DNA of 62,529 nucleotides, from the NCBI RefSeq assembly GCF_025175675.1, contig NZ_JANIOA010000027.1:1-62529 (forward strand), given 5' to 3'. Origin of the DNA: Sedimenticola hydrogenitrophicus. Its GTDB lineage: Bacteria > Pseudomonadota > Gammaproteobacteria > Chromatiales > Chromatiaceae. The notes below the pieces were generated by a model. The model ran no database searches. It was not told the origin of the DNA and saw nothing but the letters and a program-made list of their open reading frames with translations. Both the position numbers and the translations under genes were made by a program. Of this stretch, positions 17,112 through 39,337 are shown piece by piece; within the stretch, counting starts at the first letter, position 1; every line of letters starts with the position of its first letter.

Positions 17112-17414
17112 TGGATCGGCCGTGTTATTGATGACTGTGAGGTACGAAACACCGCCCGGGCGCTGAACATTGCGGCAGCCCGTGTCTCGCTGTTCCCCTA
17201 TCGGGACAACGTCTGCTCCGCCGCCTGGGCGACAAGCGTTCGGTCATGTGTAACTAATAGCAGAAAGCGGTTCGATTGCCAGAACGCTGTTGGTTTGTAG
17301 GTCCGCGGCTTGATCCGGGGTAAACCGATGCCGCCCCGCGGCCGGCTCCTGCGGCGAGCGTTGGAGGAAAGCCTTTATGGTTTCGAGGATACCCATGTTA
17401 TTGGCAGCCGGTGT
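17112..17414. other. Gene-free stretch upstream of cydP
   Basis: This 303-base gap lies between the end of the haem-oxidase operon and the cyd operon on the same strand. It should hold the cyd promoter. I looked for a TTGAT-N4-ATCAA FNR/ANR box and for a hairpin with T-run and found neither convincingly. Confidence 0.4.
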
Positions 17415-18638
17415 CTACTCGGCCTCATCAAAGGCCTCGTCACCGGTGGGCTCCAGATGCGCGACGTCGTTCATCTGCTGGCGGAATTTGGACAGCTCGT
17501 AGTACATACGCCGGCGGGCGCGGCTCTGGTTGCCCAGCGGACGGTGTTCCGGGATGCAGTGCCAGGGGTTGATCTTCAGGCGCTTGGCGAATTCGAACTG
17601 GGCCGGTGAATCGAATTTCTGGCGTGGAATATGGATAGTGGCGGCGGCAATGAAGGGTGAGAGTTTTTCCGGCCAGCGCACCGCGGCGTTCTCGATCGGC
17701 ATGCGGTGCGGGTCGGTCTGCAGCTGGATCTGCAGGTCGAACTCCACATCCCTCTGGTTCAGGGTCTTCACCATGTTGTCACGCAAGTAGTTGAAGGAGG
17801 GCGAGCCGAACGGCAGTCCGGGAATTTCCCGTGGCACCTCGGTTTTCGGCACGAACGAGTACATCATGGCCTGGCCCTCGCCGAGCAGGTAGGGTACGCA
17901 GCTGTAGTAGCGGTGGCCGAGGGGGTTGTACTGGGTTTCATTCCACAGCGCCTGCATGAGGAAGTCCCGCAGGTGGGAGTCGAAGGGATTGATGAAGTAG
18001 TAGAGCGGCATGTCCACCAGGCTCCAGTACTGCAGCTTGGCGTTCTCGCGCACATCCGGGGTGACGAAGGTGGGGGTGCAGACCCCCATCATGTCCTGGG
18101 TAAAGCGCTCCTCCTCCATCAGTTTCTCACCCGGCACGTCCATGATTTTTACCGCCATGCTGGAGAAGCCCACATCGCGGATATCCGCCGGCACGTCCGG
18201 ACCAGGACCGGAGTAACGCACGTAGGCGGGGTAGCTGCGCTGGCTGGCGAAAATGCCGCGCCGCAGGTGTTCCGGCAGATCCGCGCGCACGGTTACCGTG
18301 GCGCGCACGATGCCATGGGTCTTGGTGTTGCCGCCGCGTTCGTAGCCGCCGGGTTTGAAGTGACCACGCATCTGGTCGGCCATGAGATCGATAATGTCAT
18401 CGAGCGCCTGCTCCTCCCAGTCGAAGATTTTCTCCTCGGCCAGTCCCAGGCCAAGGTTGGGGCGATTGCGGTTGATCAGGTACTGCAGCAGCCGCGCCAG
18501 CGGCTCCCTGGTCAGGTGGTTCAGCGTCGGCCGGAACCAGGGCTCCAGACGGCGTTCCAGGTGCATGCCGGCCACCATCACCCGGTGCAGGGCATCCAGC
18601 ACCGGATAGATCCGTTGGCGCAGTGCCTTGCTCATCAT
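17415..18638 (-). CDS. Catalase-like haem protein (cytoplasmic paralogue)
   Basis: The 407-aa protein belongs to the small catalase-like family (SrpA-like). The distal-His block is intact (NTKTHGIVRATVTV, His108), followed by RSYPAYVRYSG and RDVGFSSMAVKIMDVPG, the catalase core. YNPLGHRYYSCVPYLLGEG and the C-terminal HRPLGNQSRARRRMY are typical of this branch. No signal peptide is present. Catalase-like proteins act on H2O2 or on fatty-acid hydroperoxides (allene oxide synthase, hydroperoxide lyase). It is the last gene of the six-gene haem operon and overlaps the DyP gene by 4 bp (ATGA). A secreted paralogue lies upstream at 21947-22993. Confidence 0.85.
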   Translation of the reverse strand: MMSKALRQRIYPVLDALHRVMVAGMHLERRLEPWFRPTLNHLTREPLARLLQYLINRNRPNLGLGLAEEKIFDWEEQALDDIIDLMADQMRGHFKPGGYERGGNTKTHGIVRATVTVRADLPEHLRRGIFASQRSYPAYVRYSGPGPDVPADIRDVGFSSMAVKIMDVPGEKLMEEERFTQDMMGVCTPTFVTPDVRENAKLQYWSLVDMPLYYFINPFDSHLRDFLMQALWNETQYNPLGHRYYSCVPYLLGEGQAMMYSFVPKTEVPREIPGLPFGSPSFNYLRDNMVKTLNQRDVEFDLQIQLQTDPHRMPIENAAVRWPEKLSPFIAAATIHIPRQKFDSPAQFEFAKRLKINPWHCIPEHRPLGNQSRARRRMYYELSKFRQQMNDVAHLEPTGDEAFDEAE

Positions 18639-20167
18639 GCGCTGTCATCCTTGGCCGCGGCGCGGCCGGCCAGATAGCGCAGGGCGCGAATTCCCGGCAT
18701 GAAGAAATAGGCGCCACCCTGCACGGTGATGAAGGGTGGCAGACCCTGGGTGTCCCGGGACGGCCCCTGCGGGTCGGGCTGGCTGAAGTGGTCGGTCGGT
18801 TGGCCGTCGGCAAGCGATTGCCGGTTGCCCAGCAACGGGTCGGACTCGTTCGGGAGTCCGGCAAATTTGCAGCCCATGGTCCAGGCGTTCTGCACGAATT
18901 CAAACTGGCGCGAGATATTGGCCACCAGGCAGATAAAGTGCAGGCCCCGGGGCTCGTCGGATGCGTCGGTCTCCAATGCCTGTTCCGGCGTCAACGGCGC
19001 GCCATAGACCCGGCCGCGACGCAGCAGTCGATGAAAACGGGTGGATGCGATCAGGTCGTCGTCCGGGAAGCGGCGGCCGAAGCCGAAGATCCGTTTCAGG
19101 CGTGACAGCAGTCCGGTCACCCCCGGAGGAAAATCACCCGTGCGGGGATTGGAGCGGCGGATGTGGGCGCCGATCGGACACTGGTGGCCGTGCGGGTCCT
19201 CGGCAAAATCAAACTGGTTGAGGTCGGCCTGCCGACCGCTCTCCTCAATACCTTCGATGGCTTGCGTGGTGTGCGCGACCAGCGGCGTGCCGTCGCGTTG
19301 GCGTCCCACCATGCGGCTGGCCAGCCGCTCCCGCTGTTGCAGGTCGCCGTCGGCCTGGTGATCCACAAAGCGCCAGAACCCCGCCACGTCCTGATGCAGT
19401 TGGCGCATCACCAGGTAGCTGCCGTTGCGTCCCAGGTCGTGCAGCTCGGGTTGCTCTTCCGCGGTCGGTAACAACCGTGCCGCAGGGTCGGAAAGCGGAT
19501 CAACCAGCGGACGGCGGGTGTATTGGCCGTATTCATTGGGATAGCCCAGCAACAACTCGCCCAGGGAGAGCAGGTTGGAGTAGCGGTCGCGGCGGTGCAG
19601 GTCGGTAGTCTGGCGGCGCTCCCAGTCGATGGCCGGCTGGCTGATGCCATCCACAAAGCCGAACGGCTCGCGGTCGCCATGATCCGCGGTAGGCAACTCT
19701 GCCACGGTGCGGAAAGCCCGGTTAAAGAGATCTTCTTGCAGGGTCGCCTTCCGGGCCTCCAGTTGGCCGGTCCGGGCGTAGAGCATCAGCAGCAGATGCG
19801 GCACGCTGTCTGGGCCGCCCCCCCAATGCCAGTGCGACGGGTCGTTGTGGGCCACATCCCCAAGGCGCCGCGAGCGGCTCGGCTCGGCGGCCATGCCGGC
19901 GATAAACGCTTCCGAGAAACCATCCAGCATCGCCTCGTCGAGCCCCAGGGCACGCAGGCCATCTACGGTGAAGGCCACCTGCAGGGCCGTTTCCGGTGCC
20001 GGCGTGGTCCATTCGGCGCTACTCACCGGGGCGTTATTGAGCCAGTCACCCGCCGCTGCCGGATCGGCAATCTCCAGCAACAGGAACAGCGCCTCTTTCA
20101 GGCCGCCGTGGCCGAAGCGGGCCAGGGCCTGGATGTCGCTGTATTCCGCGCTGCCGGGGCCGCTCAT
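18635..20167 (-). CDS. DyP-type haem peroxidase
   Basis: This 510-aa protein has the DyP signatures. The GxxDG motif is GFVDG (170-174, catalytic Asp173). The proximal haem ligand lies in GAHIRRSNPR (His335). Conserved aromatic and Arg positions follow, and MGCKFAGLPNESDP is near residue 425. It is longer than compact bacterial DyPs and has no Tat or Sec signal, so it is probably cytoplasmic. It starts 13 bp after the upstream gene and overlaps the downstream catalase-like gene by 4 bp. DyPs oxidise bulky substrates with H2O2. In this operon a lipid peroxide or its product is a possible substrate, but that is inference. Confidence 0.9.
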   Translation of the reverse strand: MSGPGSAEYSDIQALARFGHGGLKEALFLLLEIADPAAAGDWLNNAPVSSAEWTTPAPETALQVAFTVDGLRALGLDEAMLDGFSEAFIAGMAAEPSRSRRLGDVAHNDPSHWHWGGGPDSVPHLLLMLYARTGQLEARKATLQEDLFNRAFRTVAELPTADHGDREPFGFVDGISQPAIDWERRQTTDLHRRDRYSNLLSLGELLLGYPNEYGQYTRRPLVDPLSDPAARLLPTAEEQPELHDLGRNGSYLVMRQLHQDVAGFWRFVDHQADGDLQQRERLASRMVGRQRDGTPLVAHTTQAIEGIEESGRQADLNQFDFAEDPHGHQCPIGAHIRRSNPRTGDFPPGVTGLLSRLKRIFGFGRRFPDDDLIASTRFHRLLRRGRVYGAPLTPEQALETDASDEPRGLHFICLVANISRQFEFVQNAWTMGCKFAGLPNESDPLLGNRQSLADGQPTDHFSQPDPQGPSRDTQGLPPFITVQGGAYFFMPGIRALRYLAGRAAAKDDSA

Positions 20168-20180
20168 GGTCGCGTTCCTG

Positions 20181-21479
20181 TCATGCCTGAATCTGTGCCA
20201 GCCATTGGCGTATCTCCGCGTCGCTGTCCTGACGTACCTGCACGCCTTTGCGTATGCGGCTGTTGCGGGCCAGATCGAAGGCCGTCAGGCCGGGGTAGGC
20301 CTTGTACCAGACCTGGGTCGGCAGTGCCCGGCGCTTTAGAAAGTATTTGAATTTCTGCTCCTGTTCGGCACCGTCCTTGATCAGCCAGCGCGTGGATGGG
20401 TAACCGGCGCCGTTGCTGAACACCAGGTTCAGTCCCCAGGCCACCTTGTTGATGAAGTCGTCCATATAGCTTTCCAGGCTACCGTCGTAATTGCTGGCGA
20501 ACAGCAGGCGGCGGTTATCGTCCAGCATTACCCAGCGGGCAAAGTGGATGGTCTGCACCCGGGTCAGGTAGCCACGGTTATAGACGTGCCGGGCGGAGTA
20601 ATCGAGCAGCCAGAGAAAGAAGCGTACCGCGTGGCGCCGGAATGCCTGTGGCTTGACCTCGCCGTAGGCGCTGAAGGGATTGGTGACATCCTGGTCCTCC
20701 AGCGCGGAGAGCTCCTGCAGGTGTTCCCGGGGCGGCCGCCCAACCAGCTCCGGATCACGGCTTTCCAGCGTGCGCAGCCGCAGGATCAGGTAGGGCGACA
20801 GCAGCAGGAACAGCGGCGACAGGAGCAACAGCAGCAGCGGCACCCCGTATTTGTGCAGGCGGTTTTTCAGCCACCACTCCACCGGTGTGGGTGCCGGGGG
20901 CGTAAGGGTCAGGTGCCCGGCCGCGGTTTCCCGTTCGACAAACGACAGCAACTGCTGGCGAATGGCGCGCGAATCGTCCCGGCCGATATCCTGCACAATC
21001 CGCCGCAGCTCCCCGGACAGGGCGCGGTGCAGCGCCTCTTCCTCATGGACCTGGGTCACGGTGCGGCCGATCCAGTTGATGTAGTTGGCCGCCGGTTTCA
21101 CATCGTGCCGCTGCATCCAGTTCACCAGGCTCTCCGGCTCCCCAATGAAGTCGGCGCAGTGGCCGAAGATATGTCGCAGCTGCGGACCGGCCAGCACCGC
21201 CATTTCCGCGATAAAGCTATCCGCCGGGCCGTCATAGTCGCCGAGAAACAGCAGTCGTGGCGGCGCATCAGGCAGGGTGGTCAGCTCATCCTCCAACAGC
21301 GCTTGCAGTATCAGAAACCGGGCCACGTGCAGGCGTCCGAAACGGGCAAACGGAAACAGCGGGTTGTCGGGATCGACCATGCCCGGTTCGCGGTTCATGC
21401 TCTCCAGCAGGGCGCGCAGCGGCCCCAGCTGCCCGTTGGCGATGTCGGCAATAATCATGAACGTGGATTGGGGCGTCAT
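20181..21479 (-). CDS. Unknown membrane protein with two similar halves (432 aa)
   Basis: I do not recognise this family. A strong hydrophobic stretch around residues 214-236 (GVPLLLLLLSPLFLLLSPYL) separates two globular parts that look alike. The first has LHVARFLIL, then RLLFLGDYDGPADSFIAEMA and HIFGHCADF. The second has IHFARWVMLD, then RRLLFASNYDGSLESYMDDF and LVFSNGAGY. Both read as strand-helix units of a dimeric alpha/beta-barrel type, a fold also used by DyP and chlorite-dismutase proteins. It sits 15 bp after the 151-aa gene and 13 bp before the DyP gene, so it is part of the haem operon. A membrane-bound partner or assembly factor is possible. Confidence 0.7.
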   Translation of the reverse strand: MTPQSTFMIIADIANGQLGPLRALLESMNREPGMVDPDNPLFPFARFGRLHVARFLILQALLEDELTTLPDAPPRLLFLGDYDGPADSFIAEMAVLAGPQLRHIFGHCADFIGEPESLVNWMQRHDVKPAANYINWIGRTVTQVHEEEALHRALSGELRRIVQDIGRDDSRAIRQQLLSFVERETAAGHLTLTPPAPTPVEWWLKNRLHKYGVPLLLLLLSPLFLLLSPYLILRLRTLESRDPELVGRPPREHLQELSALEDQDVTNPFSAYGEVKPQAFRRHAVRFFLWLLDYSARHVYNRGYLTRVQTIHFARWVMLDDNRRLLFASNYDGSLESYMDDFINKVAWGLNLVFSNGAGYPSTRWLIKDGAEQEQKFKYFLKRRALPTQVWYKAYPGLTAFDLARNSRIRKGVQVRQDSDAEIRQWLAQIQA

Positions 21480-21494
21480 GTCCGATCGTCCCGG

Positions 21495-21950
21495 CTATGG
21501 GGTGACATTTCGGGTCAGGGCGAAATCCAGCACCCGGGTCTTGCCCCACCAGACCTTGCCCAGATAGACCCCGGGCTCCACCTCGCGGATTTCGTCACGT
21601 ATCGCCTTGGCGAAAAACGAGGTCTTGGAATAGTCGATGACAATGGTCTCCTGGCCGTCCATCCAGCTGGCGTCGCGGTACACCTTGGCCACCACAAAGG
21701 TGAGGCTGAACGGGGTGATCTTGTTCACCAGGATGCCGTTCTGCCGGTCCGGCGGGAACAGGTCGAAGATCTTGCCCTGCCAGGCGAACAGGCGTGCGAT
21801 GGCCGCCAGGGTCTTGGAAAACAGCGAGCCGGTGACAATGGCGGTGCCGCGGGTATCGCCAGACGGGATGGTACCGGCGCCGGCGTTGCGATAGATCTCA
21901 TCCAGCTCGTCGCGGGATTTGTCCAGCCATTTTGCAACCAGTGGATTCAT
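21495..21950 (-). CDS. Unknown small protein in the haem-oxidase operon (151 aa)
   Basis: The family is not recognised. The 151-aa sequence has no signal peptide or membrane helix. Beta-rich blocks include GTAIVTGSLFSKTL, KIFDLFPPDRQNGILVNKI and VYLGKVWWGKTRVLDFAL. The alternating pattern would fit a small lipocalin- or barrel-like lipid-binding protein, which is speculation. Its ATG overlaps the stop of the upstream secreted catalase-like gene by 4 bp (ATGA), and the next gene starts 15 bp downstream. It is thus firmly within the operon and probably acts with the haem enzymes. Confidence 0.7.
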   Translation of the reverse strand: MNPLVAKWLDKSRDELDEIYRNAGAGTIPSGDTRGTAIVTGSLFSKTLAAIARLFAWQGKIFDLFPPDRQNGILVNKITPFSLTFVVAKVYRDASWMDGQETIVIDYSKTSFFAKAIRDEIREVEPGVYLGKVWWGKTRVLDFALTRNVTP

Positions 21951-22993
21951 GGTGCCTCCCGGTTTCTGAGTTGGGATGCCTCGATGTAGGTCTCTCTGCG
22001 CACCGCGTTCATGCGTCCCAGCGGTTGATGGGCAGGCAGGCTCTGCCAGGGGTTGAAACTGATCTTTTCACAGGCCGCCAGGGCCTCGGGGCTGTCGAAC
22101 GCCTGCGCGGGGATGGTGAGCGTGGCCACCGTGTGGAACGGCGCATCCTCCTCGTCCCAGATCACCGAGGCGTCCTCGATGGGCATCTCCACCGGCCGGG
22201 TACGCGGCTGGACCCCGAACTCCAGGCAGGCCGGGCCCTGGCTCAGGTGAGCCTGCATGGCGGCCCGCAGCTGATCCTTGCCGGAGGCCGCTTGCGATGG
22301 CTGCGGGTTGTCGCTGCAGGGGGTGACCGAATATTTGACCGCCGGGCCGTCGCTGCTGCCAAACCGGTAGGGCGTGGTGCTCCAGTAGCGGATGTTGAAG
22401 GGACTGTCGTGTACGGCCCGTGCCCGGAACAGAATCCACAGGGATTTCAGGTGCGGGTCGAACGGATTGATGAAGAAACGCAGCATGGCGTCGTCCTGGC
22501 GCGCCCGAATGAAGGCGAGGAAATCCTCCGGGGTGGCGACAAACAGCGCCGGATAGCTGTTGAGCAGAAAATCCTGGATGCCGGGCTCGCCCCACAGCGG
22601 CTCCCCGTCGACGTCGAACAGCTTGATGGACAGGCCACGGATATCCTTTTTCGAATCGTCCTGCTGGCTGGCGTTGGCGAAACGCAGCGTCGTCCGGTAA
22701 CTGGCCGGCCGGGCAAACAGTCCCTGCCTGAGCGCGGCATCGAGATCGCCGTGCACACGGAACGTGGCCTCTAAACAACCCAGGCTCTTGGCCTGGTTGA
22801 AGCGGGGAATGACGCCGTTGACCGCAGCGGCCCGGGTGATGGCCGCGATACGCTGGTTCATCTCCGCCACCAGTTGTTCGGTGCTGGGCGGTTCGGCGGC
22901 GCCCAGGCCGCCCGCCAACAGGAGCCCGGTTGCCAGCAGGGGCAACGGGTGTTTGCGGCGGTCTCTGCACTGGGTGGTCATTCCATTTACCAT
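21947..22993 (-). CDS. Secreted catalase-like protein lacking the distal His
   Basis: The 348-aa SrpA-like catalase-family protein has an N-terminal signal peptide (hydrophobic LPLLATGLLLAGGLGA, cleavage near residue 33). Core blocks are present: SYRTTLRFANASQ, KKDIRGLSIKLFDVDG, YWSTTPYRFG and HQPLGRMNAVRRETY. At the distal-His position it reads QAKSLGCLEATF, with Leu71 where the paralogue at 17415-18638 has His108. Without that His ordinary catalase activity is unlikely. It may isomerise or dehydrate organic hydroperoxides, or be non-enzymatic. It starts 6 bp after the peroxidase gene and is coupled to the next gene. Confidence 0.85.
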   Translation of the reverse strand: MVNGMTTQCRDRRKHPLPLLATGLLLAGGLGAAEPPSTEQLVAEMNQRIAAITRAAAVNGVIPRFNQAKSLGCLEATFRVHGDLDAALRQGLFARPASYRTTLRFANASQQDDSKKDIRGLSIKLFDVDGEPLWGEPGIQDFLLNSYPALFVATPEDFLAFIRARQDDAMLRFFINPFDPHLKSLWILFRARAVHDSPFNIRYWSTTPYRFGSSDGPAVKYSVTPCSDNPQPSQAASGKDQLRAAMQAHLSQGPACLEFGVQPRTRPVEMPIEDASVIWDEEDAPFHTVATLTIPAQAFDSPEALAACEKISFNPWQSLPAHQPLGRMNAVRRETYIEASQLRNREAP

Positions 22994-22999
22994 TTCAGG

Positions 23000-25915
23000 C
23001 TAGGGTTTGGGGGAGAAGGCCGGGTCGGCTTCAGCGCCCGGACGCGGTTTCCAGGAGATGTCGTAATAACTGCCCCGGTCCCGTGCCCAGGGATCAAAGG
23101 CGTTTTTCACCGGCAGCAGTTCCTCCCTGAGTTCGGGGATATTGCGGATCAGCAGGCGCTTGAAGGGCGAGACCGCCACCTGGTGACCGTTCACCGCGTC
23201 GGGTTCCAGGCATGCCTCGCTACCGTCCGCCCGGGTGCTGACCGGGAACGGGCACTCCTGCACGGGGCCGTTATCCATCACCCAGTCGTAACCCAGCCGT
23301 GAATAGAACTCGGGCCGGAAGCTGGAGGTGAAGAAGCGGTCGCTGAACAGACGCCGGGAAGCGTTGATGATGAAGATGTGAAACTGGGTCTCGGAGATGG
23401 CAAAGCCGTGCGGACGGGTGTACTCCGCCATCCAGCCGACGATGTTGTCCACGTCCTCGATATTGTCCACCCGGGTGCCGTCCGTCCGGCCATGGCAGTC
23501 GTTGATGAAACTGCCGTCGGGGTTGCGCTGGGCGGTAGAGATGATCTTCGACGCGTCGCACAGGTGGGTGCCGTAGATCTCCCGCAGGCGCCGCACGGTC
23601 TCCTGCTGGTGCTGACGCCAGGGATCGTTCTCATCCAGCCGCTGATCGACAAAATCATCAAAGCTGGTCAGGGTGCGCAGGCCGATCTGGCGGCGGAACT
23701 CGTTGAAGCGGGGCACCCCGCGCTCCCGGTCGCGCAGGATATCCAGGGCGATAATGTCGAGCTTTTTGCTCTCCGAGTCCAGGTGCGGCATGGGCAGGTT
23801 CTGCAGGAACAGCGGCGAGTTGCGCAACTGCAGCAGCCCGAGGCGCTGGCGGCCCATGCTCAGACCCCAGTTCTCCAGGCCGCGCCGGTGCATCTGTTCG
23901 GTGGCGCCCTGGCGCACGGTGGAGGCGACCGCGATCTTGTGGCTGATGTTGTCCGGAGCTTCGGTATTGCGGAATTCGATCAGGTCGGGGACCAGCGCAT
24001 GCAGGCGATACACCGAGGGAAACTCCTCGGGAAAGTTGAACGGTGAGCCGAAATGGTTGGTGCCGCCGTTGACATCCTGTTCCAGGTTGGTCAGATCCCA
24101 GCCGTCATGTTTCCACCACAGATGGCCCGCGGGCCGGCTGTTGCCAAGGCCGAAAATGCCGGCCCCGGAGGCGAACACCGAGTAGGCGCCGCCGGATTTC
24201 CTGGCATCCTCGGAAACTCCGAACCACTGTACCAGGCGCGACGAGACACGACTGAGAAAGTTTTCATCCCGGCCGGTGATGCGGCGCAGGATCTGCGATA
24301 CCCGGCTCTCCTCCTGATTGAACAGGCCGGACCAGTTCGCGTTCATGGCCTTGTTCAGGGGTTCGTTGTAGAGCAGCTGGGTGGTCCATTCAATGGTGTG
24401 AATCTTGGCGATCTCTGCGGAGATGACCAGCCGTGCCGCCTGATACAGCCGTTCATCGGTCACCTCTTTGTAGCTGATTACCCGCTCCGGCTGGTCCGGG
24501 TCGCGCAGCCCCGAGTCGGCGTCGGGGGTCTGTTGCTGCAGGGCACGGAAATTGTCGACGAATGTATTGTGCTCGCGGCTGAACAGGTTGTGATAGAAGC
24601 TGAGACCGATATTCCAGTTGTCCGGAAAGGCTGCCGCCTCCTGTCCGCGCCATTGCGGCTGCACCGGGCAATCCGCGCTGTAGGCCGGGCAGTCCGGCAG
24701 CAGGGGCAGGTAGTTGTCCCGCAGCAGCAGCTTCGCCGGGTCGTTCGGGTCGCGCGCCACACGCCGCAGTGAGACCGCGTCATGACCATAGATCTGTGAG
24801 GCGTCCCACCAGGCGGTGACCTGGTTGCTGGTGGTGCGGTAGGGCCGCTTTAGATAGCTCTGACCGTCATGGGTGAAGCTCTCCGGATCGGCGGTTTCGG
24901 CATACAGGGACGGCTGCAGCCGGTCCCCGGGCCGACAACCCAGGGCCTGGGCCTCGGCCGATTCACAGCCGGCGGATGCCAGCCGCTCCTCATTCAGCCC
25001 CTCCACGGCGTGCGAGAACCAGTCATGGGTCATGAACTGAATCCAGAACGCCGCCAGTACATTAAAAAACGGCGCCTTGAGATAGTCGCAATTCACCTCG
25101 GGCGAGGCCTCGGCATCCCCCAGGCCCTGGTTGCAGCCGTTGCCCGGGGTCTGCTCGCGGGTGAACAGCTTGCGGCTGAGCAGCTGTGGATCGGGTTTTA
25201 GCAGATCCAGGCGGCCGTCGTGCCGATTGCGCGTCAGCTCGGTCTTTTGCAGGCGCGGAAAGGTCTCCTCGAATCGGGCATTGCGGGCGAACGGTGTCCC
25301 GGTCGCGCCCATCAACGGGTTGGTCAGATCGTTGCAAATGCCGTTCAGGGTGCGATGGGTGATCAGCCCGCCTTTGCACAACTGCCTGCCGTCACCGCCG
25401 ACTGCCGCATAGTCCGGGTGGTCGGGGGGCAGGCGCATTTCATCCCACACGGTTGTTGACGCGCGCACCGGATCGGTGACAAAGCGCTGGTAGGTGCTGG
25501 GATCGAACAGGTTGAACTTGATCAGTTCGATGCGCTGGTACTCCAGGTCCATCAGCGCGCCGTCAACGCCACGTCCGTTCGGGTACAGATGCTCTCCCAG
25601 GCGGGTGATGGCCTGGTCACCCGGGTGCAGACTCTGCCCGTCGCCGGTGGCGTAATAGTTCTGCCAGTCCACCCAGGGGGTGTCGCGGTATTGCACCGCT
25701 TTGTCGCCGCCACGACAGCGGGCCGTATCGGCTTCCACCTTGCCCAGGAAGCGTCGGGTGGGGTCGTCGCCAATCTCCAGCAGACCGCTTTTGGCCATTC
25801 GCAGGCAGGCTTCGGTATCGCTTTCGGCCGATGCCGATGGGCTGAACAACAACAGGCCATAAAACAGTGGACCGGTCATGGCAATTGTTTTTCTGTACAA
25901 CTGACACTTCTTCAT
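23000..25915 (-). CDS. Secreted animal-type haem peroxidase, alpha-dioxygenase/cyclooxygenase-like
   Basis: The 971-aa protein begins with a Sec signal peptide (residues 1-31, ending SASA). The distal haem block is AFWIQFMTHDWFSH, with Gln293 and His297 spaced as in mammalian peroxidases. WWDASQIYG follows, then FSREHNTF with the catalytic Arg447. IAKIHTIEWTTQLL closely matches plant alpha-dioxygenases. The proximal block SVYRLHALVPD has His639 and, three residues before it, Tyr636. That is the Tyr-x-x-His arrangement of cyclooxygenases and fatty-acid alpha-dioxygenases, where the Tyr forms the catalytic radical. The protein is some 300 residues longer than plant alpha-dioxygenases. ATG 25915 has a GGGGGA ribosome site. 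It is the first gene of the six-gene operon. A lipid-oxygenating role is inferred; the substrate is unknown. Confidence 0.88.
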   Translation of the reverse strand: MKKCQLYRKTIAMTGPLFYGLLLFSPSASAESDTEACLRMAKSGLLEIGDDPTRRFLGKVEADTARCRGGDKAVQYRDTPWVDWQNYYATGDGQSLHPGDQAITRLGEHLYPNGRGVDGALMDLEYQRIELIKFNLFDPSTYQRFVTDPVRASTTVWDEMRLPPDHPDYAAVGGDGRQLCKGGLITHRTLNGICNDLTNPLMGATGTPFARNARFEETFPRLQKTELTRNRHDGRLDLLKPDPQLLSRKLFTREQTPGNGCNQGLGDAEASPEVNCDYLKAPFFNVLAAFWIQFMTHDWFSHAVEGLNEERLASAGCESAEAQALGCRPGDRLQPSLYAETADPESFTHDGQSYLKRPYRTTSNQVTAWWDASQIYGHDAVSLRRVARDPNDPAKLLLRDNYLPLLPDCPAYSADCPVQPQWRGQEAAAFPDNWNIGLSFYHNLFSREHNTFVDNFRALQQQTPDADSGLRDPDQPERVISYKEVTDERLYQAARLVISAEIAKIHTIEWTTQLLYNEPLNKAMNANWSGLFNQEESRVSQILRRITGRDENFLSRVSSRLVQWFGVSEDARKSGGAYSVFASGAGIFGLGNSRPAGHLWWKHDGWDLTNLEQDVNGGTNHFGSPFNFPEEFPSVYRLHALVPDLIEFRNTEAPDNISHKIAVASTVRQGATEQMHRRGLENWGLSMGRQRLGLLQLRNSPLFLQNLPMPHLDSESKKLDIIALDILRDRERGVPRFNEFRRQIGLRTLTSFDDFVDQRLDENDPWRQHQQETVRRLREIYGTHLCDASKIISTAQRNPDGSFINDCHGRTDGTRVDNIEDVDNIVGWMAEYTRPHGFAISETQFHIFIINASRRLFSDRFFTSSFRPEFYSRLGYDWVMDNGPVQECPFPVSTRADGSEACLEPDAVNGHQVAVSPFKRLLIRNIPELREELLPVKNAFDPWARDRGSYYDISWKPRPGAEADPAFSPKP

Positions 25916-26047
25916 GAGTCCCCCTAGGTTCCCTTAGGGATGGATACGATCCTGGTGCAGACTGGACCGGAGTCCACGGTGTCAATAATCAAGAAAGTGA
26001 CTAATATCATAGTATATCGTCACCAATATCATAGATCGGATGAATTG
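25871..26047. repeat. 177-bp direct repeat, copy A (promoter and start of the haem operon)
   Basis: This block recurs at 28111-28287 in the same orientation with 4 mismatches. It covers the first 15 codons of the haem peroxidase gene, its ribosome site and the upstream promoter region. Homology stops abruptly at both ends. The two copies bracket a two-gene TIR module. Confidence 0.95.
25963..26034 (-). promoter_or_regulatory. Putative promoter/operator of the haem-oxidase operon
   Basis: Two perfect direct repeats of AATATCATAG (26003-26012 and 26025-26034; CTATGATATT on the minus strand) are spaced 22 bp, about two helical turns. This is typical of tandem activator or repressor sites. Closer to the gene is a TTGACA-like -35 element and an inverted repeat TGGAC-CGGA-GTCCA (25963-25976). 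I see no good -10 at 17 bp, which would fit an activator-dependent promoter. The regulator is unknown. Confidence 0.45.
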
Positions 26048-26129
26048 CCGCGTTGCGCTTCAACTCAGTCGCGTGTGAGCGGATTGAGCTGCCGGCGCAG
26101 TCCAGGACAACCGGAAGACCAGGTTTATA

Positions 26130-26306
26130 GTGGTTCGGGTGGAATCCACAGACGACTTCTGGAGTTTTCTCGACCGTATACCGCTCCTGTTACAGCAGTA
26201 CAGCACCCGCTCCTATGTGTTGCTGCTGTTGCCCGGTCTGGCGGGCGTGATCTTGCTGGCATGGCACTACCGACAGACTCCTAGGGTCAGGGTCTCTCGA
26301 CACTGA
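26130..26306 (+). CDS. Possible small single-span membrane protein (58 aa) or gene fragment
   Basis: A GTG-started frame on the plus strand encodes 58 aa: a hydrophilic start (ESTDDFWSFLDRIPLLL), a convincing membrane helix (YVLLLLPGLAGVILLAWHY) and a short basic tail. No clear ribosome site is seen. It lies just outside repeat copy A and could be the 3' remnant of a gene displaced when the TIR segment arrived. The family is not recognised. Confidence 0.35.
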   Translation: MVRVESTDDFWSFLDRIPLLLQQYSTRSYVLLLLPGLAGVILLAWHYRQTPRVRVSRH

Positions 26307-26503
26307 TGTTCGCTGCTGGCGGCATAAGGTAGGGCGTCGGCTGCTCTATCGGCCGGGTCGGGGATAAATTGGCGGTGGTGTGCAGGTGTTTCTCGATGTC
26401 GAGGAGTGAAGGGCACGGTATTGAGGGGTGGTGGCAAAACGCGTGGCCATTCGTCACCTGTGAATCGAGCGTTGGCCAGCGTGCAAAAGAGCGTTTATCT
26501 TTC

Positions 26504-27034
26504 CTATTCCCGAATCTGCAGCAGCCCGAACTCCCGGGTTGCCGGTTCGATATCGCTACGCTCGCCCAGCCCACAGGGCGGCCGATTGTCCGTCGGCGGC
26601 GCGCTGATCAGGTTCAGATCCACCGCCTGCGGCTGCCCGACAATGCCCTCATCGGTGATATTCATCTTGTGGATCACCCCGTTCCACAGACGGGCACCGA
26701 ATTCTTTGGGCGACTTGTGCAGGAACAGGAAGGCGTGCTCCAGCCAGCTCAGGTCATTCGCCGTCACGCTGGCCGGATTGGAATACGGATAGCGCACATG
26801 GCAGAACACCTCTTGCTGCCCGGTCAGGCACTTGAACTCCTTCATGGACAGGAAATAATCCTGGAACACCTTGTGGTCGGGTTTGAACTCAAAGCCCACA
26901 CGATCGCCCTTCAGTGTAAACACGACTTCGCCCAGCATCACTGCCGAACCGTCTTTACGCGCCAGTTCGATCGGGTGTGTGCCGTTCAGCTCCCAGGCAA
27001 ACACGGGCATCGCCAGCACAGCTGACAACATCAT
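26504..27034 (-). CDS. Secreted unknown protein, partner of the TIR gene (176 aa)
   Basis: I start at the double ATG 27034/27031 behind a GAGGT ribosome site. This gives a clean signal peptide (MMLSAVLAMPVFA). A longer upstream frame overlaps the TIR gene and looks spurious. The mature protein contains ELARKDGSAVMLGEVVFTL, a Cys pair in EFKCLTGQQEVFCHVRYPY (a possible disulfide), and SWLEHAFLFLHKSPKEFGAR. The family is not recognised. It follows the TIR gene by about 100 bp on the same strand, inside the segment flanked by direct repeats. Since the TIR protein has a predicted periplasmic domain, the two could meet in the periplasm. Confidence 0.65.
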   Translation of the reverse strand: MMLSAVLAMPVFAWELNGTHPIELARKDGSAVMLGEVVFTLKGDRVGFEFKPDHKVFQDYFLSMKEFKCLTGQQEVFCHVRYPYSNPASVTANDLSWLEHAFLFLHKSPKEFGARLWNGVIHKMNITDEGIVGQPQAVDLNLISAPPTDNRPPCGLGERSDIEPATREFGLLQIRE

Positions 27035-27137
27035 CGCCGCGACCTCAAACCCACTCACTTGATCGACATCACACCTGTCTCCTGTCTGTGGCCGTCCAGC
27101 CGGCCTGCGCAAGATCGCGGGCGGTTGAACACAGGCC

Positions 27138-28043
27138 TCATGGCACCACCGGCGTGACGGTGAACTCCATTGGCGACGCCGGCGTGAATCCGCCATGGAT
27201 GGCGTAGTCGACGCGCCATTGCCGGGGAGCGGATCGCACCATGCGATAGCGATGAATCAACTGCCGACGCTCCTCGCCCATCACGCTTTCGGTCCGGGTC
27301 TCGAAGCTGAGCACGCCATCCGCCCAGGTTGCCTTATCAATCGCCAAGCCATGCCCAAGAAAGCTGGCCCGGCCGACGATGGAATTGCCCTGGCGCTCGA
27401 AACTAAAGTGCTCTTGATGGGTCGGCCCCCAATCGTAATGCACCTTTCCCTGCCACTGGCCTGACGGAAAGTCATCCCCCTGCATGAACCACCAGACGGT
27501 CACCGCCAGGGCAGTGAGGAGCGCGCCTGCCAGGGAAAAAAACACACGCCGTCGCATCCTCGCTTCGCCGCCAACAGCGGCGGCCGGCGGCACCCAGCGT
27601 TCGAGCGTGTCGATCAGCCGAGCCACATCGTCTCGCCAGCCTACGTCGGAGAGGCGCACCGCCTGGCGCTGGGCGAGCGCATGCAGCACATCGGGGAGCT
27701 GCTCGACCGTGGGCATGGGAGTCTCGTCGATCAGGACCGGCACCACCGGTTTGCCGCTGGCAAGCGCCTGGGCCACCTCGTTGCGCACGAAGTCATCCTC
27801 CCGATCCAGGCGTCGAACGCCGTCGCGCTCGGTATTGAGCCAGTGTGGTCCTATGAGCGCGAGCATGACCGCTGCGGCATCGATCCGTTGGGACAGCGCC
27901 TGGGGAAACGGCAGTCCAGGTGTCAAATCCTCCACGTCACGAAACACCTGGTCGGCGCCGAAATGCGCTTCGAGCGCCTCTTCAAGGCGCCCGGCATGCC
28001 CCGACGAGCCCTCGCGACGATACGAAATGAATATCTGGCCCAT
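27138..28043 (-). CDS. TIR-domain membrane protein with extracytoplasmic C-terminal domain
   Basis: The 301-aa protein begins directly with a TIR domain (residues ~1-150). Box 1 is IFISYRREGSSGHAGRLEE, VFRDVEDLTPG follows, then VMLALIGPHWL and DFVRNEVAQAL, with Glu89 at the likely NADase position. A Pro-rich linker precedes one transmembrane helix (about 165-187, FFSLAGALLTALAVTVWW). A beta-rich domain of ~110 residues then lies outside the membrane (GQWQGKVHYDW, SIVGRASFLGHG). Bacterial TIR domains often cleave NAD+ or make signalling nucleotides. The topology suggests sensing outside and acting inside. The ribosome site is GAGG just before ATG 28043. The gene lies 7 bp after a truncated copy of the haem peroxidase start, so copy B of the promoter repeat probably drives it. 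Confidence 0.85.
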   Translation of the reverse strand: MGQIFISYRREGSSGHAGRLEEALEAHFGADQVFRDVEDLTPGLPFPQALSQRIDAAAVMLALIGPHWLNTERDGVRRLDREDDFVRNEVAQALASGKPVVPVLIDETPMPTVEQLPDVLHALAQRQAVRLSDVGWRDDVARLIDTLERWVPPAAAVGGEARMRRRVFFSLAGALLTALAVTVWWFMQGDDFPSGQWQGKVHYDWGPTHQEHFSFERQGNSIVGRASFLGHGLAIDKATWADGVLSFETRTESVMGEERRQLIHRYRMVRSAPRQWRVDYAIHGGFTPASPMEFTVTPVVP

Positions 28044-28050
28044 GCCTCAC

Positions 28051-28155
28051 TTAGAAGAACGAAGCGAGTGCTGCCAGTGGTGGCGCCGGGTGTGAACGAA
28101 TAGAACCTATACCGGTCACGGCAATTGTTTTTCTGTACAACTGACACTTCTTCAT
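28051..28155 (-). pseudogene. Truncated N-terminus of the haem peroxidase gene in repeat copy B
   Basis: ATG 28155, with the same ribosome site as the intact gene at 25915, opens a 34-codon frame. Its first 15 codons match the start of the haem peroxidase (MKKCQLYRKTIAVTG; the intact gene has Met for Val at position 13). It then diverges into unrelated sequence and stops at TAA 28051-28053. The TIR gene starts 7 bp later. It is either a junction scar or a leader peptide coupled to TIR translation. Confidence 0.75.
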
Positions 28156-28287
28156 GAGTCCCCCTAGGTTCCTTTAGGGATGGATACGATCCTGGTGCAG
28201 ACTGGACCGGAGTCCACGGTGTCAATAATCAAGGAAGTGACTAACATCATAGTATATCGTCACCAATATCATAGATCGGATGAATTG
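28111..28287. repeat. 177-bp direct repeat, copy B (upstream of the TIR module)
   Basis: 173 of 177 positions match copy A at 25871-26047. The mismatches are at 28119, 28173, 28234 and 28245. The one at 28245 alters one of the two AATATCATAG boxes. Orientation is the same as copy A, so the same promoter points into the TIR gene. The low divergence suggests recent duplication or ongoing gene conversion. Confidence 0.95.
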
Positions 28288-28494
28288 GCACGGCGCTCAA
28301 TAGCGGATTGGTTAATGGGCGGGGAGCGGTCTCCCCGGGGTCAGGCGACCGAAATATTTGGGGGCATGGAGTTGGCGTGTTGCGGTGCGCAGCATCAGTC
28401 CGGCTCTCGCGCTCTGCAGTGCCGTTGTCGAATACCACCCGTCACCGGGCGAATGGTGCGAGAGCGTATCGGCCACTACTTCAACCCGCTTCCC

Positions 28495-31400
28495 TCAGCG
28501 CTCCACATCGTAGATCAGGTCCATGCTCTGGCTGCTGCCGGATTGCACCTCCAGGCGCAATCGCTCGCTCAGACGATAGCGCGTGACCAGGGCACCGCGG
28601 TTGTCGAACAGACCGACCGCGTAGCTGACATAGAGATCGGGTGAGAGGTATTTGCCCAGCAGCAGGGAGGTATCCTCCAGGGTCTCGCCTTCCTCGAAGC
28701 GGACCTCGTCCACCCCCAGTCCGCCGGCCAGCCGGTTGAGAATTTCCTGGCTCTTCTCCAGGCCCTTGGCGGCCGCGGCCTGGCGCAGCATGGCGGCGCT
28801 CCCCGGCCCCTCCTCGGCCAGGCCGCGGCCGGTGATCAGGTAGGCCAGGGCCTCCTCCTCCGGCAGGCTCGGGTCGCTGGAGACCTGTACCCGGGGGTCA
28901 CGCAGATTGCCGCTGAGGTTGAGTACGGCCGTCACCGAGCGGTCGTGCGAAAGTCGGGTAGCCCGGATATCCAGGCTTGGATTCTGCGGCGGTCCGTTGA
29001 ACAGCAGGCGACCCTGCTGGATGGTCAGGTCCTGGCCATAGGCGCGGTAGCGCCCCTCCTGCAGCGACAACTCACCGCGTGCCAGGGTCCGGTCTTCCCG
29101 GCTGTTCAGGGCGACCGCCCCCTCCAGCCGGGTCTTGAGACCGAAGCCGCTGAAACGGACCTGGTCACCGAGCTGGATGAACAAACGCGTCTCGATGGCC
29201 AGGGGGGGCGTGCTCTGTTCGGTTCCGGTTTGTCCGACGATGACCTCGTCCTCACTCACTTCCACGGCGCTTTCGGGCAGCTCCCGCAGCTGGATATCGG
29301 CCTTGGGGATTTTCAGGTTGCCCTCGACCTGGAGCCGGCGGTTGCGCAGGCCGATCTCCAGTTTGGGGGAGGCGTAGGCCACCGCCTCCGGCAGTCGCAC
29401 AACCTGGATCTCCTCGCCCTGCAGTTTGAGGCTAAGCGGCCAGCCCTGGGCGGCATCGAGTAGCAGGTCTCCCTGCAGCCTGAGGGTGCCGCCTCCGGAG
29501 ACCAGCTGACCCTCCAGCACCAGTCGTTCGTTGCCGCGGTTGCGGGCGGTCAGTTGCACCCCTTCCAGCATCAGGCCAAGCTGCGGTAGATTGGCGGCCC
29601 CCTCATCGAGGGTCGCCAGGGCTTCAATCCGCGGTTGGCCAAGGTCGCCGTCGAGGCTGGCCTCCGCCACCAGCCGGCCCCGGAGGTCACGCAGGCCCGG
29701 CAGCAACAATCCCAGGGGTTGCAGATCGGGCAGTTCGGCCTTGAGGTTTCCGGATACGGCGAGGGGTTTCCCCGCGTTGAAGGGGGCGGTGCGGGCATCG
29801 GCGGCGATCCGTCCGTCACCGGCTTTTATTTCCAAGGAGGCGCGGTTTCCCTCCGGGGTCATGCGCAGGGTCAAGAGCCCGTCCCGCAGGGCCAGCTGCA
29901 ACGGCTGATCCTCTGCCGCCTCCATCCGCAGGTTCCCCTGGGGCAGCGCCAGTCGCGCCTCGCCCGTGAGGGCGGGGAAGGTGCCCGCCAGGTGCAGTTC
30001 CCCGTCGAGGCTGCCGTTGACCGCCACCTCTGCCGGCAGCCAGTGCAGCAGGCGGTTCAGCGGGATGGCCGTGAGGTTGCCATCGACCCGGCTGCTCTTC
30101 GGAGTCCAGGCGCCGCTGGTACACAGGCGTGCCTGCTCCTGGGTCAGGCAGGTCTGCTCCAGATTGAATCGGTCGCTGCCGGCCAGCAGGGCCGAGCGGC
30201 CGGTCGTGGACCAGCGTCCGAACTGTGCCTGGTCTATGGCAAGCCGTTCCAGGTGGCCGCGCCAGAGCGGGGCGTTCCAGCCACCCTGCAGCGCGGTGTC
30301 GAGCCGGAGGTCGCTGGCCTCCAGGCTCAGCCGGACCTGGTGGGCTTCAGGGGTCCCGGTGAGGCTGAGTGACAGCCGGCGGCCCTGCCATTCGCCACTC
30401 TGCAGACCGGTCGCTGTCAGCTGGCCCTCGGCCCGACCCTGCAGCCAGGTCAGGTCCGCCTCCAGCCGGCCGATCCGCTGCTCCGCATAACTCAGGCCGG
30501 TGGCCCGGAGCCGGGTGCTGAATTCCGGCTGGTCCCGCGTGCCACCCAGCCGCCCGTCGGCCGTGATCGCCCCCTGCAGCGCCGGCCAGAAGGCCGCCAG
30601 CTTCGGCGCCTGCAGGTCATAGCGCAGATCCAGCCGTTCGCCCAGACGACCCTGCAGCTTGAGCCCGTTGGGTCCGCTCTGCAGATCCAGCGCCTGCAGT
30701 TCGAGGCCGTTGTGGTCGTAGCGCCCGCGCCCGCTGGCCGTCACCGGCTGCTGTTGCAGGGTGCCGTCCAACCGCCGCAGTTCGGTGCTCAGCCAGAGCC
30801 CCTGATCCGAGATGCCGCCCTGCAGCGTGGCCTGCAGGGCCAGTTTGCCGGGCCACTCCGGCCACTGGCGCGCCGGGTTCAGGGAGTCGCCGCTGATCGC
30901 CAGGTTCCAGTCGATGGCCGGGGCCCAAGTCACCTGGCCCTGGCTGCGCAGGGTACCGTCCAGCAGTTCGGCCTCGAGGGTCATGTCGGAGAGGCCGCCG
31001 GCGCTCAGCTGGCCCTGCAGTCGTGCCTGAATGTCCGGCGCCCCGCCCTGCGGGAAATGCAGGTCGGCCTGGCTCTCCAGGTGCGGATTCGTGACCGGGC
31101 CGCTGAGCCGGAAGCTGCCGTTCGGGCTCTCATTGAAGGCTTCGCTCAACAGGGGCCAGCGGACCTGCATCCATTCACCACGCAGATCCAGTTGCGGTTC
31201 CTCGCCCGCCAGCCGGACCGCGCCGGTGACCCGCAGCTGTAGCGGCGACAGTCCCGCCGCGCGGATCTCCCGCACCTCCAGGTCCAGATCGGTCAGGCCG
31301 TCGGGGGAGAGCCGGGTCTCCAGCCGCGCCTTGAACGGCGGGGTATCGGTACCGGGAAACAACAGCTCGGCCTCGCTGCTCAGCCGCGGGGACTCCAGCG

Positions 31401-32220
31401 GGCCGCTCAGTCGATACTGGCCACCGGCGCTCTCCACCACGGCATCCTGCGGCGGCCAGGCCAGTGGCCGCCAGTCGCCTTCGAGCGTCAGCTCGGGGCT
31501 CTCGCCGGACAGGTCGACCTGACCCTGGGTGCGGATCCCGAACGGCCTTTCCAGGGTGTGTTGGAGGGTCAGTCGTTGCAGGTTGCCGTTGATCTCTCCG
31601 CTACCGCGCGCCGGCCCGAACTCAGGCCCAAGCTCCGACAAGTCCCCCTGCCAGCGGATCTTTAACTGCAGCGGGTAGTCCTCGGCCAGCTCGATTTGCC
31701 CCTCCACCTCGGCCCGGTAAGCGGCGTAGTCGACCTGGAGGTTGAGGATCTCCAGCGTGTCTTCCCGGGTGCGGGCGTTGAGGGCGAGGCGGCCGATCGA
31801 CTGCGCCTCGTCGCCGTCCCCTATGCGGATATCATCCAGCTCGACCTGGTCCAGGCGCAGCGTCAGCGGCAGCTGTGGCGGGGCGGGGCTCGCCGCCGTT
31901 TCGGCCGGGGCTAGGGAGACGTAGTGAATGCCGCTCGCCTGCAGCTGCCGGATATGCAGCAGGCCGCCGAACAGGGCGGTTGGCTCCCAGCGCAGGTGCA
32001 GGTTCTCGATGGTCAGCCGCAGTTCACCGTCACGATACGCCACCCCCTGCAGGTCCAGTCCCTGGAGCAGGGTGCCGGCATAACGTTCGATGCGCAGGTT
32101 GTCACCCAGGGTCCACTCTAGCAGACGCCGGTTGCCCTGCTCGCTCCCCAGCAGCCAGGCAGCGCCACCTACTATGCCGAGCAGCGTCAGCAACAACACC
32201 AGGAGCAGCGGCCGCCTCAC
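28495..32220 (-). CDS. tamB: Translocation and assembly module inner-membrane protein TamB
   Basis: The 1241-aa protein has an N-terminal anchor (LLLVLLLTLLGIVGGAAWLL, about 5-24). A very long repetitive beta-rich region follows, as in AsmA/TamB-like bridge proteins that span the periplasm. The C-terminal DUF490 domain contains LSGNLRDPRVQVSSDPSL and EEEALAYLITGRGL. It works with TamA in outer-membrane protein assembly and in phospholipid transport to the outer membrane. Its ATG overlaps tamA's stop by 4 bp. The length is close to the E. coli protein (1259 aa). Confidence 0.95.
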   Translation of the reverse strand: MRRPLLLVLLLTLLGIVGGAAWLLGSEQGNRRLLEWTLGDNLRIERYAGTLLQGLDLQGVAYRDGELRLTIENLHLRWEPTALFGGLLHIRQLQASGIHYVSLAPAETAASPAPPQLPLTLRLDQVELDDIRIGDGDEAQSIGRLALNARTREDTLEILNLQVDYAAYRAEVEGQIELAEDYPLQLKIRWQGDLSELGPEFGPARGSGEINGNLQRLTLQHTLERPFGIRTQGQVDLSGESPELTLEGDWRPLAWPPQDAVVESAGGQYRLSGPLESPRLSSEAELLFPGTDTPPFKARLETRLSPDGLTDLDLEVREIRAAGLSPLQLRVTGAVRLAGEEPQLDLRGEWMQVRWPLLSEAFNESPNGSFRLSGPVTNPHLESQADLHFPQGGAPDIQARLQGQLSAGGLSDMTLEAELLDGTLRSQGQVTWAPAIDWNLAISGDSLNPARQWPEWPGKLALQATLQGGISDQGLWLSTELRRLDGTLQQQPVTASGRGRYDHNGLELQALDLQSGPNGLKLQGRLGERLDLRYDLQAPKLAAFWPALQGAITADGRLGGTRDQPEFSTRLRATGLSYAEQRIGRLEADLTWLQGRAEGQLTATGLQSGEWQGRRLSLSLTGTPEAHQVRLSLEASDLRLDTALQGGWNAPLWRGHLERLAIDQAQFGRWSTTGRSALLAGSDRFNLEQTCLTQEQARLCTSGAWTPKSSRVDGNLTAIPLNRLLHWLPAEVAVNGSLDGELHLAGTFPALTGEARLALPQGNLRMEAAEDQPLQLALRDGLLTLRMTPEGNRASLEIKAGDGRIAADARTAPFNAGKPLAVSGNLKAELPDLQPLGLLLPGLRDLRGRLVAEASLDGDLGQPRIEALATLDEGAANLPQLGLMLEGVQLTARNRGNERLVLEGQLVSGGGTLRLQGDLLLDAAQGWPLSLKLQGEEIQVVRLPEAVAYASPKLEIGLRNRRLQVEGNLKIPKADIQLRELPESAVEVSEDEVIVGQTGTEQSTPPLAIETRLFIQLGDQVRFSGFGLKTRLEGAVALNSREDRTLARGELSLQEGRYRAYGQDLTIQQGRLLFNGPPQNPSLDIRATRLSHDRSVTAVLNLSGNLRDPRVQVSSDPSLPEEEALAYLITGRGLAEEGPGSAAMLRQAAAAKGLEKSQEILNRLAGGLGVDEVRFEEGETLEDTSLLLGKYLSPDLYVSYAVGLFDNRGALVTRYRLSERLRLEVQSGSSQSMDLIYDVER

Positions 32221-39250: not shown

Positions 39251-39337
39251 TGGTACCGAGGGTCGGACTCGAACCGACAAGGGGTTGCCCCCGGGGGATT
39301 TTGAATCCCCTGTGTCTACCAATTTCACCACCCCGGC
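39251..39337 (-). tRNA. tRNA-Leu (anticodon CAA)
   Basis: The 87-nt gene has an encoded CCA end, a 7-bp acceptor stem (GCCGGGG/CCTCGGT with one non-standard pair), and a D-arm with GAAATTGGTAGAC. The anticodon stem-loop is GGGGA-TTCAAAA-TCCCC (anticodon CAA, reading UUG), and a long class-II variable arm follows. GGTTCGAGTCC is the T-arm loop. An intrinsic terminator follows at once. It is divergent from queA. Confidence 0.96.

What the first reader, a model, noticed from the sequence alone, without database searches (positions are those of the whole stretch)
25871..28287. TIR module bracketed by 177-bp direct repeats that duplicate the haem-operon promoter
Copies at 25871-26047 and 28111-28287 agree at 173 of 177 positions and end sharply. 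Each holds the haem operon's promoter region, ribosome site and first 15 codons. Copy A feeds the intact oxygenase gene and copy B feeds the TIR gene. Two adjacent, functionally different units thus appear to share the same regulation. The repeats would also allow loss of the TIR module by a single recombination.
Basis: partly seen in the sequence, partly recalled or inferred. Interest (0 to 1): 0.85.

Follow-up and report, generated by a model that had tools for sequence, protein, structure and literature searches.

The report
Duplicated promoter captures a TIR gene
In one Sedimenticola species the start region of a haem-peroxidase operon has been copied and now sits in front of an inserted gene for a membrane-anchored TIR (immune-receptor-like) protein, so the two may be switched on together; the copy is real, the shared control is not yet shown.

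Summary
In detail: 25871-26047 and 28111-28287 agree at 173 of 177 bases, and a search of the genome found only these two copies. The genus is Sedimenticola. Four congeners have the operon; all four show a single copy (R) before the peroxidase gene and no TIR module. A frameshifted remnant of the gene that neighbours R in two of them still abuts copy A, so A is probably native and B the duplicate. B brings two genus-conserved boxes, the ribosome site and 15 codons, which run into a 34-codon leader that stops 7 nt before the TIR start. Best reading: a segmental duplication put an inserted TIR gene behind a copy of the operon's control region. Shared expression and repeat-mediated loss are inferred, not shown. 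A roughly 95%-identical sister species lacks the whole 11.2-kb block, but its breakpoints lie outside the repeats. The TIR protein is predicted as SARM1-like TIR, membrane helix, and (tentatively) calycin-like barrel. Different TIR genes adjoin the same operon in two other lineages (co-directional at its 3' end; divergent upstream): a possible functional link, weakly supported and tested after the fact. No recombinase was found in the insert.

The parts
25871..26047 (-). Repeat copy A (probably native): upstream region, ribosome site and first 15 codons of the haem-peroxidase gene
   Evidence: 173/177 to copy B; single homologous copy before the peroxidase gene in 4 congeners
28111..28287 (-). 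Repeat copy B (probable duplicate) in front of the TIR gene
25997..26035 (-). Two direct 17-base boxes (CTATGATATTnGTnAC type, 22-bp period) in copy A: candidate regulator sites
   Evidence: pattern search; conserved in the alignment with 4 congeners, second box degenerate in G003
28237..28275 (-). The same two boxes in copy B (one substitution in the downstream box)
28051..28155 (-). 34-codon hybrid leader frame: 15 peroxidase codons plus 19 others, stop 7 nt before the TIR start
   Evidence: translation
27138..28043 (-). TIR gene, 301 aa: SARM1-like TIR (1-150), hydrophobic helix (about 167-188), 8-stranded C-terminal domain (197-298)
   Evidence: Pfam TIR_2 1.4e-13; AlphaFold, helix region under pLDDT 50; Foldseek SARM1; hydropathy
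26504..27055 (-). ORF of 183 aa (an ATG-started frame could begin at 27196), possibly secreted by look, family of unknown function
   Evidence: no Pfam or NCBIfam family; relatives in 16 of 209 other family genomes, and a paralogue in its own
26139..26327 (+). Truncated, frameshifted remnant of gene X, which is the divergent upstream neighbour of the peroxidase gene in G007 and G008
17415..25915 (-). Haem operon: animal haem peroxidase, catalase-like, two without family, DyP-like, catalase-like (the last by similarity to the first catalase-like gene)
   Evidence: same gene order in 4 congeners
28495..32220 (-). tamB, upstream neighbour of R also in G002 and G003
   Evidence: Pfam TamB 1.1e-65
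17337..28494 (.). 11.2-kb block (operon, both repeats, TIR module) absent from the sister species G006
   Evidence: no R match in G006 at E 0.1

Best explanation
Segmental duplication with regulatory capture. The native control region of the haem-peroxidase operon (copy A) was duplicated, and the copy (B) now lies directly upstream of an inserted TIR gene, between the operon and tamB. B supplies the operon's candidate operator boxes, transcription start and ribosome site. The 15 peroxidase codons became a short leader whose stop lies 7 nt before the TIR ATG, so TIR translation is probably coupled to it. The regulator that acts on the operon should therefore also act on the TIR gene. Shown: repeat, gene content, single-copy state and absence of the module in relatives, X remnant beside A, leader geometry. 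Inferred: A is the original, B is active, the regulation is common, translation is coupled, the TIR protein is an NADase or receptor, and a single A x B crossover could delete the module while leaving the peroxidase gene in frame.
For: 173/177 identity and no third copy found in the genome. One R homologue before the peroxidase gene in G002, G003, G007 and G008, without the TIR module. Remnant of gene X beside A, matching the X-R-peroxidase order of G007/G008. Both copies seem to carry changes of their own: at position 43 A agrees with G002, G007 and G008 (B with G003), at position 115 B agrees with all four relatives; positions 54 and 169 are unclear. Boxes conserved in the genus and nearly unique in the genome. 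Intact TIR frame with a full-length relative of 43-45% identity.
Against: No expression data. No sigma-70-like site found on the operon strand. Upstream flanks of A and B show no clear homology to the intergenic regions of four relatives (8 comparisons; the best two were reached by 7 and 8 of 300 shuffles), so the exact pre-insertion state is unknown. B carries one substitution in a conserved box. Draft assembly: a 177-bp repeat exceeds some short reads. Alternative routes (circle integration, template switching) are not separated.
Confidence: 0.7

Rival explanations
1. Integration of a circular or incoming DNA piece (R plus TIR, ORF183 and the X remnant) by one crossover in R, the way a non-replicating plasmid or a satellite element integrates. 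The chromosome was in the G002/G003 state (tamB-R-peroxidase) before.
For: Outcome R-cargo-R with an intact target gene is what one crossover gives. tamB next to R is the state of G002/G003 and X next to R that of G007/G008, and the window shows both.
Against: No recombinase family in the frames searched inside the insert: TIR and ORF183 and the overlapping other frames 26369-27025, 26406-26792, 27484-28095, 27681-28103 (+) and 26287-26574 (-). No close TIR relative among plasmid or viral records. B's outer flank is not detectably like the tamB-R spacers of G002 or G003.
Confidence: 0.2
2. Assembly artefact: the true chromosome has tamB-R-peroxidase with the TIR piece elsewhere or as a circle, and the assembler threaded it through R.
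For: Draft of 132 contigs; 177 bp is longer than many short reads; relatives G002 and G003 have exactly the empty arrangement.
Against: The copies differ at four places, of which one points each way, and each has its own flanks. The X remnant links the insert to copy A as in G007/G008.
Confidence: 0.07
3. Neutral leftover: B is a passenger of a random duplication and has no role in TIR expression, and the TIR gene has its own start or is silent.
For: No measured expression; no sigma-70-like site on the operon strand; one change in a conserved box of B.
Against: TIR frame intact and conserved against distant relatives; leader stop 7 nt from its ATG, leaving only 28044-28110 outside the repeat for a separate start; a transcript from R would run straight into it.
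Confidence: 0.25

Closest known systems
Direct-repeat-bounded excisable wzy locus of Salmonella Typhimurium (PMC12074656; outline and abstract seen)
   Same: A chromosomal gene bracketed by direct repeats.
   Different: There the repeats are perfect and excision and return were observed. Here the repeats are 98% alike, contain a control region and gene start, and no excised state of the same species is known.
Bacterial TIR_2-domain proteins with a membrane anchor
   Same: TIR_2 domain over its Pfam cut-off; the solved relatives found by sequence are SARM1 entries and SARM1 ranks first by fold; relatives in G002, G006 and Methylomicrobium also have a TIR, a hydrophobic stretch and a tail of about 100 residues.
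   Different: Far below the NCBIfam cut-off for Thoeris ThcB4 (38 against 220 bits). PADLOC hits cover only parts of the models.
Promoter or enhancer capture by segmental duplication (general evolutionary process, recalled)
   Same: A gene placed behind a copy of another operon's control region.
   Different: Here the duplicated piece also brings 15 codons that form a leader frame ending just before the captured gene.

Membership tests
Mobile element with attachment-site repeats (integrative element, cassette) | Carries or neighbours a recombinase | tested here: not met
   Pfam on 7 further frames in and around the insert gave none, on TIR and ORF183 TIR_2 only; immediate neighbours are the haem operon and tamAB
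Mobile element with attachment-site repeats (integrative element, cassette) | Same insert or repeat at other sites or in other genomes | tested here: not met
   Two repeat copies in the genome; of 189 other genomes 7 gave module-DNA matches, all of about 200 bases or less (in which only the best 2 candidates per genome were scored); no full-length TIR match in 141 others
Repeat-mediated excisable segment | Site with one repeat copy and no insert in relatives | tested here: met
   G002, G003, G007, G008 have one R copy and no module; these are other species, so an ancestral absence fits equally
Repeat-mediated excisable segment | Excised product observed within the species | not testable with these tools
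   One genome per species is held; no reads
TIR domain NADase | TIR fold | tested here: met
   TIR_2 1.4e-13; Foldseek to SARM1 TIR, E 8e-8, target TM 0.85
TIR domain NADase | Catalytic glutamate (SARM1 E642; role recalled, the mutant E642A appears in a PDB title) | tested here: inconclusive
   E89 is invariant in 5 of 5 aligned TIRs and lines up with a glutamate of SARM1 in DWVHKEI; that this residue is E642 is recalled; activity not tested
Thoeris / CBASS / SPARTA-type defence TIR | Whole-length match to a defence model or partner genes | tested here: not met
   PADLOC hits of the window protein cover 56-118 residues only; NCBIfam ThcB4 far below cut-off; neighbours are the peroxidase operon and tamAB

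The most novel reading that the evidence does not exclude
TIR proteins have been recruited repeatedly, by three different routes, into the regulon of a bacterial animal-type haem-peroxidase operon: promoter duplication in this species, attachment to the operon's 3' end in two congeners, and divergence from a shared intergenic region in a pair of gammaproteobacterial MAGs. In each case the protein seems (by eye) to have a membrane anchor. The peroxidase is exported and makes an oxidised lipid or oxidant; the periplasmic domain (here a lipocalin-like barrel) senses it, and the TIR turns it into an NAD-derived signal or cell shutdown: a bacterial pairing of peroxidase and TIR receptor.
Probability: 0.12. 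Interest if true: 0.85.

Novelty: new variant of a known kind. Interest (0 to 1): 0.45.

Why it matters
It would be a clear natural case of regulatory capture: a receptor-like TIR gene wired to an oxidative operon by copying that operon's control region, in two adjacent copies still 98% alike. If the TIR-peroxidase linkage recurs for functional reasons, it would give a handle on what membrane TIR proteins of environmental bacteria sense, which to my knowledge is largely open.

Tried and rejected
Mobile cassette: no recombinase family in the frames searched, no third repeat copy, no further copy of the module found. Phage or plasmid origin of the TIR gene: 6 plasmid records match, the widest covering 78% of the query at 28%, and 2 viral contigs give short 36-40% matches. 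Known RNA element in R: no Rfam match at the gathering threshold in 25000-29000. Known defence system: partial PADLOC and sub-cut-off NCBIfam hits only. Operator boxes as a wider peroxidase feature: of 22 loci scanned (of 80 plus congeners), only the Sedimenticola loci L040 and L063 (the same locus) and L064 were at or below 2 mismatches; the other 19 needed 5-8, about what shuffles give. Telling circle integration from template switching by flank homology: inconclusive. A remnant of the peroxidase gene beyond codon 15 inside the module, expected if a whole-gene tandem duplication had decayed: only matches of 14-22 bases, best E 0.06. A TIR relocated from the G006/G002 TIR locus: only 42-44% identity, so not the same gene. 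A genome-contig scan with the TIR protein found nothing. Literature searches (2 to 15 top rows of each listing seen) showed no title that describes a TIR gene next to such an operon; beyond listings I saw the outline and abstract of PMC12074656 and passages of PMC7075850 (not used for a claim). Not followed: a search for the transcription factor.
Full report
Observation. The repeat is as described: 25871-26047 and 28111-28287, 173 of 177 identical; looser extensions reach 182 nt at 97% and 189 nt at 95.8%. It is the only direct repeat over 40 nt listed in the window, and the search of the 4.71-Mb genome found no third copy. The repeat (R) is 44% G+C in a 62% G+C window.

Where it is. The kinship labels of the genome search put G001-G008 in the window's genus. 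On the minus strand the order is tamA, tamB (Pfam), copy B, TIR gene, a 183-aa ORF, a remnant of gene X (opposite strand), copy A, then the six-gene haem operon starting with an animal-haem-peroxidase gene.

Relatives. Eight congeners came up in the searches. Four have the peroxidase gene (G002, G003, G007, G008; 80-84% identity). Four gave no match (G001, G004, G005, G006), of which G004 is 65% complete. In G002 and G003 tamB is followed directly by one R homologue and the operon. In G007 and G008 the upstream neighbour is a divergent gene X. None of the four has this TIR module. Of 189 other genomes searched with the module DNA, 7 gave matches, all of about 200 bases or less; one of them, in G007, is gene X (only the best 2 candidates per genome were scored). 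The protein search found no full-length match among 141 other genomes. The window keeps codons 1-43 of X in frame, then a piece in another frame, and no further similarity, right beside copy A. So A with X is the older neighbourhood and B is the likely duplicate. The four A/B differences do not all point one way: at position 43 A has the base of G002, G007 and G008 and B that of G003; at 115 B has the base of all four; 54 and 169 are unclear. Both copies seem to have changed since the duplication, which also argues against a simple assembly error.

Sister species. G006 is 93-97% identical over the long aligned blocks, but the stretch 17337-28494 (operon, both repeats, TIR module) is missing: window 28495 (the last base of tamB) and 17336 are 9 bases apart there. 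No R match is found in G006 at E 0.1, though that search also missed the diverged R of G003 and G008. Since G002 and G003 share the tamB-operon neighbourhood, loss in G006 is the simpler reading.

What R carries. Aligned with four congeners, R shows two direct boxes of the type CTATGATATTnGTnAC with a 22-bp period (second box degenerate in G003) and a conserved ribosome-site region. With up to three mismatches the 17-base box occurs five times in the genome: twice in each copy and once elsewhere; the reversed control pattern occurs once. I infer an operon-specific regulator that is not identified. A sigma-70 scan found no site on the operon strand and Rfam has no match at its gathering threshold. 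In copy B the 15 peroxidase codons run into a 34-codon frame that stops 7 nt before the TIR ATG.

The TIR protein. 301 aa; TIR_2 over the Pfam cut-off. The 17 solved sequences found at E 1 are all SARM1, and by fold SARM1 TIR domains rank first. E89 is invariant in five aligned TIRs and lines up with a SARM1 glutamate. A hydrophobic stretch from residue 167 follows three arginines, which by the positive-inside rule (recalled) puts the TIR in the cytosol and the rest in the periplasm; the model is poor there (pLDDT under 50 at 159-190). The last 100 residues fold as eight strands (pLDDT 77 alone; block means mostly 50-73 in the whole model). Foldseek gives weak matches to lipocalin-, avidin- and nitrobindin-like barrels, none at E 0.001 or better, so 'calycin-like barrel' is tentative. 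The best full-length relative found is in the genome of locus L097, a Methylomicrobium (43-45%), far from its peroxidase gene. Relatives of the 183-aa ORF lie in 16 of 209 other family genomes. None of the five such loci that I fetched has a TIR relative in the stretch, and in the two that I annotated (L155, L156) the neighbours are PQQ-alcohol-dehydrogenase genes. So the two genes of the module have no evident common history.

TIR genes beside this operon. In G007 and G008 another TIR gene (about 680 aa) follows the last operon gene on the same strand, the frames 34 and 67 nt apart. In two 95%-identical MAGs (L088, L090) a third kind of TIR gene is divergent from the peroxidase gene, 0.6-0.7 kb away. 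In L134 a TIR gene lies 2.5 kb downstream on the other strand. As control I counted TIR relatives in the genomes of all 80 named loci: 52 in 365 Mb (sizes rounded by the tool), in 24 of 80 genomes. Four of the 52 fall in the 1.38 Mb of fetched loci (L064, L088, L090, L134), where 0.24 are expected. Counting the two MAGs once leaves three (simulated P 0.002); also dropping L134, where the TIR gene is not next to the peroxidase gene, leaves two (P 0.024). One further weak ORF hit (L129, 7e-5) is not among the 52 and was dropped. The test was made after the fact, and 76 of 80 loci have no such neighbour in the stretch held, so I treat a functional link as a lead. The window and G008 are not in these counts. 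The long TIR gene of G007/G008 has relatives elsewhere in other congeners, such as G000:C88, so in those two species the neighbourhood, not the gene, is special.

Mechanism. Most likely a segmental duplication or template switch put a copy of the operon's control region in front of the incoming TIR gene. A single crossover of a circle carrying X, R and TIR would give the same layout and cannot be excluded. What follows for the cell, that peroxidase and TIR are made together, is inference. A crossover between A and B would remove the module and leave the peroxidase gene in frame, because both copies carry the same 15 codons; no such product was seen.

Changes after checking. 

Noticed in passing
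genome G000 and G006, e.g. G000:C2:3984-4147: A roughly 160-bp interspersed repeat: the query gave 84 matches in G000 and 93 in G006, most of the listed ones to this stretch (MITE- or REP-like by look). One copy lies just upstream of the G006 TIR gene.
   Followed up: no
window 39290-39309 against G006 C33: G006 holds about 8.8 kb extra at this point, another large insertion/deletion between the sister species.
   Followed up: no
L160 (G006:C27) against G000:C47:70550-71377: G006 and G002 carry a TIR gene of similar layout; in the window's genome the flank was found but not the gene (40 of 123 candidates scored), and its three TIR relatives are others.
   Followed up: partly
L088 and L090: A TIR gene with a reversed layout (N-terminal part, hydrophobic stretch, C-terminal TIR) is divergent from the same peroxidase gene in two 95%-identical MAGs.
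   Followed up: partly
window 17415-25915: Six-gene set of peroxidase, two catalase-like, DyP-like and two proteins without family keeps its order in many of the 80 loci, in gammaproteobacteria and some Desulfobacterota genomes; its product is unknown.
   Followed up: partly
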